Shown piece by piece: positions 51,519 through 57,732 of a stretch of DNA of 64,000 nucleotides. The position numbers were made by a program, and so were the translations under genes. Origin of the DNA: Janthinobacterium sp. J1-1 (GTDB lineage: Bacteria; Pseudomonadota; Gammaproteobacteria; Burkholderiales; Burkholderiaceae_D); contig NZ_CP132339.1 of the NCBI RefSeq assembly GCF_030944405.1, forward strand, positions 6,634,001 to 6,698,000, given 5' to 3'. The notes under the pieces were generated by a model, which was not told where the DNA came from, did not search any database, and saw only the letters and a program-made list of their open reading frames with translations. Position 1 is the first letter of the stretch, and every line of letters starts with the position of its first letter.

Positions 51519-53188
51519 ATCGCCTCCAGGTTCAGGTCGACCAGCCGGCGCGCCAGCTGTTCCACATAATCTTCATCCTGGCCGCGCGGATGGTTGCGCA
51601 GGCCAAGATGCAGGTATTCATGGGCCAGGGTGATGCGGTCTTCGCGCGTGGCCAGCGGCCGCATGTAGATGCGGTTGCGCGACTGCTCGGAATACGGCGC
51701 GCCGCTCGACAAGGCACAGACCAGTGGCGCTTGCGGCGGCGCCTCGTAGCCGGCCTCGCGCAGCAGCACGCGCCGCCAGCGTGGCACGGACCGGGCCAGC
51801 CAGTCTTCGTTTTGCGCCAGGCGCTGGCAGCGCGCGCCGGTATTGCCAAAGGTGCTCAGCGCGCCGCCCGGGTAGGCGGCCGCCAGCAACTCGTCATAGT
51901 GCTTGCCTTGCCTGGCCTGCCGCACCGCTTCCGTCCACGCCATCGTGCCCTCGGACGGCGTGGTGCTGTGATAGCGCACGGTGACGCCATCGACGATCAA
52001 TTGGTCGGTCCAGCGCGCGATCGCCAGCGCCGCCGGCGTGGCCGGGCTGGGACTGACGCGCTGGGTGGCGCTGCTGTCGGCGATCTGCTGGCAGCCCGCC
52101 ACCGTCACCGCGTTCTGCTGCAGATACGTGCGCGCGGCAATCGCCAGCGCTTTGGCCGCTTCCGGCTCGCCGGCATTCGCTTCGCGGTCCAGCACGCGCG
52201 CCACATATTCATTGACGCCGAAGCGGCCGCGCAATTGCGGGCGGCCACCCTTGTCCTGTACCAGCATCAGTTCGCCGCTGCTGCGCAAGGCCAGGTTCTG
52301 GCCATTTTCAAAGCGCACATGGTAGCGGCCATTGAGCGGCCCGGGTGCGGCAATACCGCGCTCGCCACGCACGGCGCGGATCGGATAGCGCTGGAAGTAA
52401 TCGACCACCACGCAGCCGCCATCGTCGGCCGCGCCCACCGGCGGCAAGCTGGCGGCCAGTCTGGGCGCCCACTGCTCGAACACATTGCTGCTGCCGCCCG
52501 CGCCGCCAAACCAGATCGGCGTGCCATCAGCCAGCCAGCCGGCCGCGCCGCCGATGCGCCCACTCGCCTGATGCCAGGAATAGGTCTTGACGCGCAGTTG
52601 GCTGCCGAACCAGCGGGCCGTACCTGCGCCGCGTCCATCGAGCACCACCCGCAGCAGCGCCGCTTCGGCATCCTGGCGACTGGCAGCCGGAATGCTGCCC
52701 AGCGCGCGCAGCAAGCTGTCCAGGCGCACCGTGCGCTTTGGTGCCAGTTGGGCGGGATCCGCCAGCCAGGCAAAGTCGCCCGCGGGCGCGCTACCCAGGC
52801 GACCGGTCCAGTATTTGCGCCACGGCGCGGCGGTGATCATCAGGCGTTTGGGCGAGAAAAACAGGCCGCAGGACTGCGCCAGCGCCGCGTCGTGGCCTAT
52901 GCTCTGGCCCGCGTCGCAGCAATACACTTCTTCCGGATCACGGCCACCGCAGCGGTAGTCCGGCATCGCCACCTTGCTGTCGCTGGCGTAGACATACACG
53001 AACAGCTTCCACAGGCTGGCCAGCGGCACCTGCCGCGCGCCGTCGAACGGCGGCGGCGCGGCGCCGCCCTGGCGCAGCTGGCGCACTTCCAGCTTGCCGT
53101 CGCGCCACCAGGCCATATCCAGCGAAGCCGCCCACGCAGGCGCGGCCAGCAAGGTGGCAAGCATCAAGGCTGGACGGGCAAAGCGCAT
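51515..53188 (-). CDS. yfaQ: YfaQ-like DUF2300 protein with SxxK, SpoIID-like and HExxH motifs
   Basis: 557 residues from the ATG at 53188 (GTG at 53191 is also possible); signal peptide MRFARPALMLATLLAAPAWA. Three parts are visible. Residues 50-130 hold VPLASLWKLFVYVY, an SxxK box (S58, K61) as in serine beta-lactamase/PBP folds. Residues 320-450 (GRFGVNEYVARVLDRE, AAKALAIAARTYL, RYHSTTPSEGTMAWTE) resemble the SpoIID/LytB amidase-enhancer domain. The C-terminus has LAHEYLHLGL with HEYLH at 523-527, a zincin-type metal motif. Together these point to a role at peptidoglycan or in proteolysis; no activity is proven. Overlaps both neighbours. Confidence 0.82.
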   Translation of the reverse strand: MRFARPALMLATLLAAPAWAASLDMAWWRDGKLEVRQLRQGGAAPPPFDGARQVPLASLWKLFVYVYASDSKVAMPDYRCGGRDPEEVYCCDAGQSIGHDAALAQSCGLFFSPKRLMITAAPWRKYWTGRLGSAPAGDFAWLADPAQLAPKRTVRLDSLLRALGSIPAASRQDAEAALLRVVLDGRGAGTARWFGSQLRVKTYSWHQASGRIGGAAGWLADGTPIWFGGAGGSSNVFEQWAPRLAASLPPVGAADDGGCVVVDYFQRYPIRAVRGERGIAAPGPLNGRYHVRFENGQNLALRSSGELMLVQDKGGRPQLRGRFGVNEYVARVLDREANAGEPEAAKALAIAARTYLQQNAVTVAGCQQIADSSATQRVSPSPATPAALAIARWTDQLIVDGVTVRYHSTTPSEGTMAWTEAVRQARQGKHYDELLAAAYPGGALSTFGNTGARCQRLAQNEDWLARSVPRWRRVLLREAGYEAPPQAPLVCALSSGAPYSEQSRNRIYMRPLATREDRITLAHEYLHLGLRNHPRGQDEDYVEQLARRLVDLNLEAM

Positions 53189-56100: not shown

Positions 56101-57732
56101 CGTGGTAATCGAGCGTTCGATCATCAGCTCGCGCGTCGCCTTGACGCGGTAGGCCGCGCCATCGGTTGCCAGCACAGTCAATATATAGCGCGAGGGATCG
56201 GTGGCGGCCGGCAAAGTGAAATCCAGATTGCCGCTGCCGTCGCTGACGACTTCCTCGGTCTTCAGCGCCACCGGAAACAAGCCGCTATAACGCAGCTCGC
56301 CTTCGACCATGGTGTTTTGCTGGCTGCGCAGCGAGAGGGTCATCTTCGCGTTTTTCACCGGCTTGCCATCCGGGTAGCGCAGCGCGATGCTGCCCTTGAC
56401 CGCCTCGCCCGTCTTGAATTCGGGTTTCGATGGCTGGACATTGATTTCAAAGTGCGGCTTGACATATTCGGCCACGCGGAAGGCCGCGCCATACACGCCG
56501 TCCTTGTAATTGAAGCGCAGCTCATAGCCGCCGGCGGTGGCTTCCCTGGGCAGGCGGAAGCGCGTTTCGGCGCCCGTGTCACCAGACAGCTGCAGCGTTT
56601 GCGTCAGCAGCGGCGTGCCGTTCGGATTGAGCACGCTCAGGCTGATGGGCGCCGCGGCGGCGGCCTGCGAGTTGCGCGCCGAGGTGAATTCGCGACCCAA
56701 GAACTTCACGTTGACTTCGTCGCCGGGGCGGTACAGGGGCCGGTCGGTCACCGCATAGATCTTGGTGTTGTAGATCTCGCTGTCATAGTAGAAATTCTCG
56801 GACACGAACACACCGCCGGCGCGGTCCTGGCCCAGCACATAGGTGTGTTCGGGGCTGCCGCGCTCCATCGAGGCGACCCCGTCGGCGCCGGTGCTGGCCG
56901 ACTGCAGCACGCCGGTGCCGTCGGTCCATGCCACGCTGGCGCCGGCCACGGCGGCGCTGTTGTCGCGCCGTGCGGTCCACACCAGCATCTGGACGGACGA
57001 GACCTTGGTCACCGCCACCGTGTCCGACACGAACACCAGGGTGGTGGCGCGGTGTTCGCCGATGATCGCTTCGATCAGGTACAGGCCCGGCTTGCGCTTG
57101 CCGAGCGGGATCATCACATTGCCGGCGCCGGCGACGATGAATTCGCTGCTGGAGCCATCGAGTTTCACGCCTTTCGGCGGTTCAATCGCCTTCGCCTGCC
57201 ACAACGGATAGCGGAAGCTGTCGACCAGCTCCATGCCCTTGATCGGCTTGTACTGCGGATGGTTGGCAAACACGGTGCGCCGGCGGATCGCGTCATTGGT
57301 CGCCAGTTGCGGCTGCTCTTTTGTCACGGCGAGGCGCGCGTCGCCCGAAAACAGCTTGCGCCAGGCCAGGCGCGACTGCTTCCACCAGCTGTCCCACAAA
57401 AAGCTCAAGGTGTTGGCCAGGCCTTCGCCCTGGTAATTGCCTTCGACCTGGATGCGGTGCAGATTGCGCTGCTTCTTCAAAAACTCCATCGGTTCGGGCA
57501 CGCGGTAGACGACGATGTCGGCGCCCGAATACGCTTCCAGGTTCATGCGCCCCATGTCGCGGCCCGGCACTTCCAGGCGCACGCGCGCTTCGTCGGCGCT
57601 GCCGTAGCTGGCGTCCGACAGCAGGAAGAACGGCTCGCCCTTGAAGGTCGTGTAATTGCTTGGCTGGCGTTCCTGCGCCGAGGCGCCAGCCATCAGCACG
57701 AACGCCAGCAAACTCGCAAAAAGCAGCTTCAT
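53188..57732 (-). CDS. yfaS: Periplasmic alpha-2-macroglobulin, YfaS/MagD type, with CVEQ thioester motif
   Basis: 1514 residues, signal peptide MKLLFASLLAFVLMAGASA without lipobox Cys, so probably soluble or complex-bound in the periplasm. Macroglobulin (MG) domains are visible in TDRPLYRPGDEVNVKFLGRE, YRPGDTAEALITFSDKVD and VYQPGEKVTLDVKATLDGKP. The alpha-2-macroglobulin core follows: TAYWAPSLKTDASGNARVSF, TMPDALTRWRITGRAMDD, then IDYPYGCVEQTASRLIPLVL with C1053-V-E-Q1056, the thioester site. Such proteins trap proteases through a covalent thioester. ATG at 57732 overlaps the yfaT stop; the frame is open further upstream but that part is yfaT antiframe. Downstream yfaQ start overlaps the stop. 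An opposite-strand open frame of similar length is a GC-bias shadow. Confidence 0.93.
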   Translation of the reverse strand: MKLLFASLLAFVLMAGASAQERQPSNYTTFKGEPFFLLSDASYGSADEARVRLEVPGRDMGRMNLEAYSGADIVVYRVPEPMEFLKKQRNLHRIQVEGNYQGEGLANTLSFLWDSWWKQSRLAWRKLFSGDARLAVTKEQPQLATNDAIRRRTVFANHPQYKPIKGMELVDSFRYPLWQAKAIEPPKGVKLDGSSSEFIVAGAGNVMIPLGKRKPGLYLIEAIIGEHRATTLVFVSDTVAVTKVSSVQMLVWTARRDNSAAVAGASVAWTDGTGVLQSASTGADGVASMERGSPEHTYVLGQDRAGGVFVSENFYYDSEIYNTKIYAVTDRPLYRPGDEVNVKFLGREFTSARNSQAAAAAPISLSVLNPNGTPLLTQTLQLSGDTGAETRFRLPREATAGGYELRFNYKDGVYGAAFRVAEYVKPHFEINVQPSKPEFKTGEAVKGSIALRYPDGKPVKNAKMTLSLRSQQNTMVEGELRYSGLFPVALKTEEVVSDGSGNLDFTLPAATDPSRYILTVLATDGAAYRVKATRELMIERSITTYQLKATRQFSDPGQAVHFDLLADGQGAAKPVRWEMVQLEKQTKTDGAFDPNAKGWDVTFPASGSYQLALRDERGNLLAAASHWVSGDGVQATPGSIEIVLDRARYRPGDTAEALITFSDKVDQALFTLERDKVEHHGLMAGSAEWYQAKRVAPRQWRVRIPVKEEHGPNMTFSVAYTRNGDFVFENAGLQVIEPRIALQFKADKEVYQPGEKVTLDVKATLDGKPLSTMVALGVVDEMIYVLQPEIAPEIGDFFYHPRRNNVRTTASLSFISYDMAQGRTAGAPARHNYNERGVKVLERPRRDNIDTAYWAPSLKTDASGNARVSFTMPDALTRWRITGRAMDDQGRVGQRTGYLRSDKSFYAKWTAPDWMRAGDAPRASVAVFNQTGKEQALDVTLSGAGGTQTKTEKLSAKPGVNYVEFPLAAGSGPLRLELKQNGKVVDALDTAMQTLPAAWSSPRSLVLPLDGATGELALKLPADARNIRVAFTQGAASQFARIADDLIDYPYGCVEQTASRLIPLVLATQSLGPDAGAPYERLQATLTAQRLRLVSMAGPKAVFGWWGNATAGNALMTAYAYYADWYASRALRIELPAEHWNKLLAVYSESGLKDPLGDRALVLWMAHEMGLPTQTLASGLVDDSAIATLGGKPRQPGDSGSLLLGGAADREAQAMSLGLVALVAAQNGIALPHSLQLQVASAWQVLRESKAPVAQALLMLAGEVPATQAEAVLASVRAEMPTLDRAMTLMWVQKKLGGVAFGKGLTLALDGAWQKRDSRSGQAVWRWTDAKAVPDKLRLSASTPAPAGTVAVVQYDSHAAETQTLPVTVERRILRMKAGKGGYTTELVKPGEALSTDALYLDEITLKAAPGTKHRFGLLEVALPPGAMVESTTWGMVMAGDKPAALERARHTERRDGYAVPVEPLEGDVTVRHLIRFAQKGSYVLPPARFYRMYQPEQKAFEGSGKTTRALKVE

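What the first reader, a model, noticed from the sequence alone, without database searches (positions are those of the whole stretch)
53188..57732. YfaS/MagD-type alpha-2-macroglobulin that keeps a thioester
The six-gene operon context is the YfaS/MagD one, and as I recall the published description of that class the CxEQ thioester is usually absent, unlike the pbpC-linked YfhM class. Here CVEQ (C1053-Q1056) is intact inside PYGCVEQTASR. If this holds, the operon could use covalent protease trapping rather than only conformational binding, and would be an intermediate between the two known bacterial classes.
Basis: partly seen in the sequence, partly recalled or inferred. Interest (0 to 1): 0.8.

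Follow-up and report, generated by a model that had tools for sequence, protein, structure and literature searches.

The report
Mag-operon macroglobulin keeps its thioester trap
This bacterial protease-trap protein, likely from a Janthinobacterium, carries the four-letter motif and the shielding residues of a reactive thioester, so it likely grips its targets covalently, and 104 of 140 distinct relatives surveyed carry the motif too although the published class description says it is absent, which suggests that the well-studied Pseudomonas and E. coli forms lost it.

Summary
The A2M gene (57732-53188, minus, 1514 aa) has CVEQ at C1053-Q1056, with its only cysteine, inside a mag/yfa operon. But the premise "this class usually lacks the thioester" and the reading "intermediate" fail. 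Of 141 distinct mag-clade proteins (window included) 105 have CxEQ, 34 Gly and 2 Ser at the Cys; Glu-Gln is kept in 141. Trees put the window protein inside the mag clade, apart from the pbpC-linked class, and need at least five changes of the Cys, most simply repeated loss. The published rule that Type II lacks CXEQ (PMC5764988) fits most Pseudomonas-family members sampled and E. coli, not the clade. Two signs suggest a working thioester: 96 of 105 Cys-bearers have exactly one mature Cys while 33 of 36 losers have none; and a C-terminal Met, counterpart of the thioester-shielding Met1625 of the Salmonella protein, tracks the Cys best of 411 conserved columns (99 of 103 versus 3 of 36), though the kinship-controlled test is too small to be significant. 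Covalent capture is likely, untested. It is a thioester-bearing variant of a known kind that corrects a class definition.

The parts
53188..57732 (-). mag-operon (YfaS/MagD-class) alpha-2-macroglobulin, 1514 aa, predicted secreted (residues 1-19 look like a signal peptide, inferred; no Cys for a lipobox)
   Evidence: clade
54565..54576 (-). CVEQ thioester motif, C1053-Q1056
54553..54588 (-). YPYGCVEQTASR, with Y1049 and Y1051 = thioester-pocket tyrosines (Tyr1175/1177 of SaA2M, Tyr1183/1185 of ECAM)
53251..53256 (-). M1493-Y1494 of the C-terminal MG domain, aligned with the Met-Tyr thioester-shield pair (Met1625/Tyr1626 of SaA2M)
53845..54633 (-). thioester domain (alpha-helical, residues 1034-1296), predicted
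55198..55377 (-). predicted disordered stretch, residues 786-845, likely bait region (inferred)
   Evidence: pLDDT under 50; it starts at the end of the Pfam A2M_BRD match
58400..60010 (-). DUF2138, MagB/YfaA homologue
57729..58436 (-). DUF1175, MagC/YfaT homologue (weak NlpC/P60 match)
51515..53191 (-). DUF2300, MagE/YfaQ homologue (SpoIID match just over its cut-off)
50721..51518 (-). DUF2135 gene, MagA/MagF/YfaP-type
49964..50719 (-). second DUF2135 gene; start at MMKTLP inferred

Best explanation
This gene encodes a mag-operon alpha-2-macroglobulin whose sequence carries CVEQ and the four residues aligned with those that shield the thioester of pbpC-linked bacterial proteins, and it is predicted to form an internal Cys1053-Gln1056 thioester and likely captures proteins that cut its bait region covalently in the periplasm. 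Shown here: motif, sole cysteine, shield residues, operon, clade. Inferred: secretion; thioester formation; trigger by bait cleavage, release of the TED from the C-terminal MG domain, acyl transfer to the attacker. The covalent state is inferred to be ancestral for the mag clade; most Pseudomonas-family forms and E. coli YfaS are derived, having lost the Cys (mostly Cys to Gly) and usually the shield Met, and would now work without a covalent bond. What is captured in life is unknown; attackers entering the periplasm, such as T6SS-delivered enzymes, are a guess from the P. aeruginosa mag phenotype.
Against: No chemistry was seen; a motif does not prove a thioester. MagD of P. aeruginosa traps a protease without one (PMC5764988 passages), so the fold can work non-covalently. 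The Met coupling rests on few independent events: 5 pairs, same way 3.2, opposite 0.0, no difference 1.8, sign test median p 0.25; 3.6, 0.1, 1.4, p 0.125. 4 of 103 Cys-bearers lack the Met and 3 of 36 losers keep it. Direction (loss, not gain) depends on the outgroup root; the trees are quick ones with one support measure and long-branch warnings, and the order inside Pseudomonas is poorly resolved, so a regain there is not excluded. Glu-Gln persists in 36 of 36 losers, so its presence is not evidence of a thioester. The structure ranking does not single out thioester proteins: complement C5, which ranks first, scores 18.9 (that C5 lacks a thioester is recalled).
Confidence: 0.78

Rival explanations
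1. The thioester is a remnant: CVEQ is kept by descent but the protein works as a non-covalent clamp like P. aeruginosa MagD.
For: MagD traps TEV protease without CXEQ (PMC5764988); Cys-less members keep the operon (L078-L080, L082 and L095).
Against: Cys1053 and the shield Met stay together in 99 of 103 Cys-bearers down to about 40% identity, while losers mostly lack both; an unused lone periplasmic Cys would be expected to drift (inference).
Confidence: 0.14
2. The protein is a pbpC-linked (YfhM-class) macroglobulin, or a chimera that received its thioester domain from one, i.e. the first reader's intermediate.
For: CxEQ is the published mark of that class (PMC5764988).
Against: Core and TED-only trees put it in the mag clade (100*; both with the tool's long-branch warning); TED 13% identical to the genome's own pbpC-linked protein and 79% to the Duganella mag protein L008; pbpC lies beside the other A2M.
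Confidence: 0.02
3. The lone Cys serves another role, such as a disulphide between two subunits or to a partner Mag protein.
For: A single unpaired Cys can crosslink subunits (general knowledge); not tested here.
Against: The Cys is followed by xEQ in 105 of 105 Cys-bearers and goes with the conserved Tyr/Met shield residues; it is aligned with the buried thioester Cys of Type I.
Confidence: 0.06

Closest known systems
MagD of Pseudomonas aeruginosa / YfaS of E. coli (mag or yfa operon macroglobulins, published Type II)
   Same: Same operon gene families, one clade; window protein 48% identical to a Pseudomonas-family member (L079) and 46% to the long open frame of K-12 YfaS.
   Different: Published MagD lacks CXEQ (PMC5764988); 26 of 35 Pseudomonas-family loci read GVEQ, two E. 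coli copies and one Citrobacter copy GGVIN; where the Met was checked it is Leu or Val in these Pseudomonas-family losers, Ser in the intact E. coli copy, Val in Citrobacter. P. aeruginosa MagD itself was not fetched.
SaA2M / ECAM (YfhM), Type I, pbpC-linked bacterial macroglobulins
   Same: CxEQ, YPYG pocket tyrosines, C-terminal Met-Tyr shield; model aligns with native SaA2M and ECAM.
   Different: Separate clade; not next to pbpC; no Cys for a lipobox, whereas YfhM is named a lipoprotein; 17% identity over the 4u48 fold match. The host has its own Type I A2M + pbpC elsewhere.
Thioester-bearing mag-operon proteins of Burkholderiales, some Pseudomonas and other Pseudomonadota
   Same: Same motif and shield; same operon families where the operon was read.
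   Different: No difference of kind seen; the window protein is an ordinary member of this majority.

Membership tests
mag/yfa-operon macroglobulin clade (YfaS/MagD) | operon with DUF2138, DUF1175, A2M, DUF2300, DUF2135 | tested here: met
   Pfam matches for all six window genes. Of 18 fetched loci, 16 hold relatives of all five kinds (9 with two DUF2135 genes, 7 with one found); L088 and L089 are cut
mag/yfa-operon macroglobulin clade (YfaS/MagD) | groups with YfaS/MagD-type proteins in a tree | tested here: met
Type II A2M as published | absence of CXEQ | tested here: not met
   CVEQ present; so it is not filed as Type II in that sense; the feature also fails for 104 of the 140 other distinct members
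Type I A2M (YfhM class) | CXEQ | tested here: met
Type I A2M (YfhM class) | gene beside pbpC | tested here: not met
   neighbours are mag genes; pbpC is beside the genome's other A2M
Type I A2M (YfhM class) | groups with YfhM in a tree | tested here: not met
A2M/complement thioester-protein superfamily | helical thioester domain and MG-domain frame | tested here: met
A2M/complement thioester-protein superfamily | shielding pocket residues around the thioester | tested here: met
   Y1049, Y1051, M1493, Y1494 by alignment; no coordinates were available to measure contacts
A2M/complement thioester-protein superfamily | chemically formed Cys-Gln thioester and covalent capture | not testable with these tools
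   needs purified protein

The most novel reading that the evidence does not exclude
The mag system is ancestrally a covalent trap: in most of its clade the thioester protein, held in the Mag complex, covalently tags enzymes that break into the periplasm, including peptidoglycan-cutting T6SS effectors, and the famous thioester-less MagD and YfaS are repeatedly degenerated forms in which the Cys and the shield Met decayed together. 'Type II lacks the thioester' is then a sampling artefact of two model lineages.
Probability: 0.3. Interest if true: 0.75.

Novelty: new variant of a known kind. Interest (0 to 1): 0.5.

Why it matters
A 2018 paper makes the missing thioester the mark of the mag class (PMC5764988), and a 2025 paper gives the missing key residues as a reason why its function is unclear (PMC12663445). 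If most of the clade has a shielded thioester, the class should be defined by operon and tree, the covalent mechanism becomes directly testable with a Janthinobacterium protein, and natural sets of Cys and Gly versions show what the fold does with and without covalent capture. [quoted passage not shown] the majority, the repeated loss and the co-loss of the shield Met were not seen in the listings of my searches or the passages read.

Tried and rejected
Type I placement and TED transfer: rejected. Redundancy with a second A2M as the cause of Cys loss: not supported; a second A2M match is found in 18 of 33 Cys-bearing and 5 of 28 Cys-less genomes (counted by hand; Fisher p 0.004, not corrected for kinship), i.e. 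the opposite direction. The plain Fisher test of Met versus Cys (p 4e-24) is not used as proof because the rows are related. A first pattern missed 7 of 80 motifs; the alignment and the wider pattern resolved them (6 Cys, 1 Ser). Outgroups for one search were taken with a pattern that requires the motif (19 of 19 had it); the count without that choice is 47 of 47 non-mag loci, themselves found mostly by similarity to a thioester-bearing query. Rows dropped: L088 (no A2M in the stretch), exact or near-exact duplicates (177 records to 140, plus the window), rows thinned by identity (to 58, to 70), cut rows L219 and L247 from the tree, L219, L225, L226 and L054 from that, those and L038 from that; L248 was not read. 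Consensus promoter scan: no site upstream of the operon. The rank order of fold matches was not used to choose a class.
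Full report
WHAT IS THERE. The ORF at 57732-53188 (minus strand) encodes 1514 aa starting MKLLFASL. CVEQ lies at residues 1053-1056 (nt 54576-54565) and C1053 is the only cysteine of the protein. Pfam finds MG2, A2M_BRD, A2M and bMG10 over their cut-offs and bMG3 under it. Its neighbours are DUF2138 (60010-58400), DUF1175 (58436-57729), DUF2300 (53191-51515) and two DUF2135 genes (51518-50721; 50719-49964), all on the same strand and overlapping or nearly so. These are the mag/yfa gene families; E. coli K-12 has yfaA, yfaT, yfaS (pseudogene), yfaQ and yfaP, with one DUF2135 gene. 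The same genome has a second A2M (1964 aa in L221, CFEQ) directly followed by a gene with transglycosylase, transpeptidase and BiPBP_C domains, i.e. the pbpC-linked class.

IS CxEQ UNUSUAL FOR THE CLASS? No. Of the first 13 mag-type loci (window's own included) 12 have CVEQ. Samples, counted: the window's family 11 of 12 (116 genomes searched); the window's order, drawn evenly, 9 of 9 (349 genomes); the class of G472 5 of 6 (48 genomes); the family of G484 9 of 35 (198 genomes; this is the Pseudomonas family, as its G804 copy equals that of Pseudomonas sp. ML96); the genus of G106, which holds Duganella and Pseudoduganella, 13 of 21 (74 genomes); named loci 77 of 80 (the closest 80 of 528). 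These samples overlap. Among the 15 of 398 genomes that an even phylum sample showed to have DUF2138, 10 have the Cys and 5 do not, reading the states. All distinct proteins together: 141 with the window, Cys 105, Gly 34, Ser 2, and Glu-Gln in 141. Codons at the site: TGC 95, TGT 9, GGC 29, GGT 3, GGA 1, GGG 1, AGC 2 of 140, window not counted. Looked at apart, two E. coli copies (K-12 long frame; ES7) and one Citrobacter copy read GGVIN; the gene covers at least 80% of the query in 5314 of 5426 E. coli genomes, of which only those two were read. Five named Pseudomonas (8AS, PDM15, ML96, Gutcm_11s, P. alcaligenes) have CVEQ, so both states occur within the family. P. aeruginosa MagD itself was not fetched.

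WHERE IT BELONGS. A tree of 74 rows on residues 640-1130 with the motif columns removed puts 58 mag-clade rows on one side of a 100* branch and 16 other bacterial A2Ms on the other; the window protein sits with L008, L107 and L125 (Duganella, Rugamonas, Janthinobacterium; 98*). A TED-only tree of 73 rows gives the same split (100*), and the window TED is 13% identical to both the genome's own pbpC-linked protein and YfhM, against 79% to L008. Both trees are quick ones (SH-aLRT only), and the tool warned of long branches at the split. So it is most likely neither a YfhM-class protein nor a chimera.

LOSS RATHER THAN RETENTION BY ONE. The Cys label needs 7 changes on the first tree (6 forced for the losers by starred branches, E. 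coli included) and 6 on a 70-row full-length tree without the E. coli piece (5 forced). All 47 non-mag loci have CxEQ and so do most deep mag branches, so loss is the simpler reading; this depends on the root, and a regain inside Pseudomonas cannot be excluded because branches there are weak. Losers in the thinned tree: a clade of the window's family (L010, L117, L118, L237, L238, L241, L243; L117 and L118 are Pseudoduganella), Variovorax L175 (SVEQ), L217 of G547, and several Pseudomonas-family groups; E. coli besides.

MECHANISM. Likely: secreted to the periplasm by a signal peptide (inferred), held in a complex with other Mag proteins as shown for MagD (PMC5764988), bait cut by an attacker, TED released from the C-terminal domain, thioester exposed, acyl transfer from Gln1056 to the attacker. 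Only the sequence parts are shown here. For MagD the literature shows trapping without covalent bond (PMC5764988, abstract and passages) and protection against some peptidoglycan-targeting T6SS effectors (PMC12663445, abstract and passages); the latter authors call the mechanism unknown and report no protection against Burkholderia thailandensis attacks.

WHAT IS IN PRINT. PMC5764988 states that Type II lacks the thioester; PMC12663445, citing it, says that key residues are not conserved; [quoted passage not shown] not held). The passages of PMC12939704 that I saw do not treat the class. Robert-Genthon 2013 was not held. The listings showed no paper that reports the majority or the repeated loss; subscription papers are not covered, so this is weak evidence of novelty.

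OPEN. Why Glu-Gln is kept in 36 of 36 losers though a thioester is impossible there: a figure legend of PMC4498604 says that the shield Tyr binds the motif's Glu in native SaA2M, which could explain Glu, not Gln. The E. coli and Citrobacter copies read have lost both.

VERDICT. Observation confirmed; 'rare exception' and 'intermediate' rejected; covalent trapping likely. In the published sense it is not Type II; by operon and tree it is a mag-clade protein. I call it a thioester-bearing variant of a known kind, and the useful result is the corrected class definition.

Noticed in passing
L185 and L186 (Pseudomonas family), motif region: YPYCGVEQ: the lone mature Cys stands one residue before the thioester position, which is Gly.
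   Followed up: no
window 55198-55377 (residues 786-845): The predicted disordered, likely bait stretch is strongly conserved in the mag clade at its ends (for instance RRNNVRT and LERPRR), unlike what one expects of a broad-spectrum bait; the middle varies more. It may point to a specific cutter.
   Followed up: partly
NZ_CP134684.1 39667-44202; CP137936.1; NZ_CP051662.1: Mag-class A2M genes in plasmid records of Citrobacter and E. coli; the other four of the seven plasmid-collection records with a hit are 1.4 Mb or longer and may not be plasmids.
   Followed up: partly
L146: A metagenome bin titled Bordetella parapertussis groups with Paucimonas, Gallionella and a Sulfuricurvum-labelled bin in the tree; the label is doubtful.
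   Followed up: no
window 57729-58436 and 51515-53191: NlpC/P60 match under its cut-off in the DUF1175 gene and SpoIID match just over it in the DUF2300 gene; both families are linked to peptidoglycan (recalled).
   Followed up: no
L085, L086, L087, L091: The DUF2300 ORF is short (134-237 aa) in these four operons; they and L084, L090 and L094 showed only one DUF2135 gene in the stretch fetched.
   Followed up: no
61 genomes: A second A2M accompanies Cys-bearing mag proteins more often (18 of 33) than Cys-less ones (5 of 28); not corrected for kinship.
   Followed up: partly
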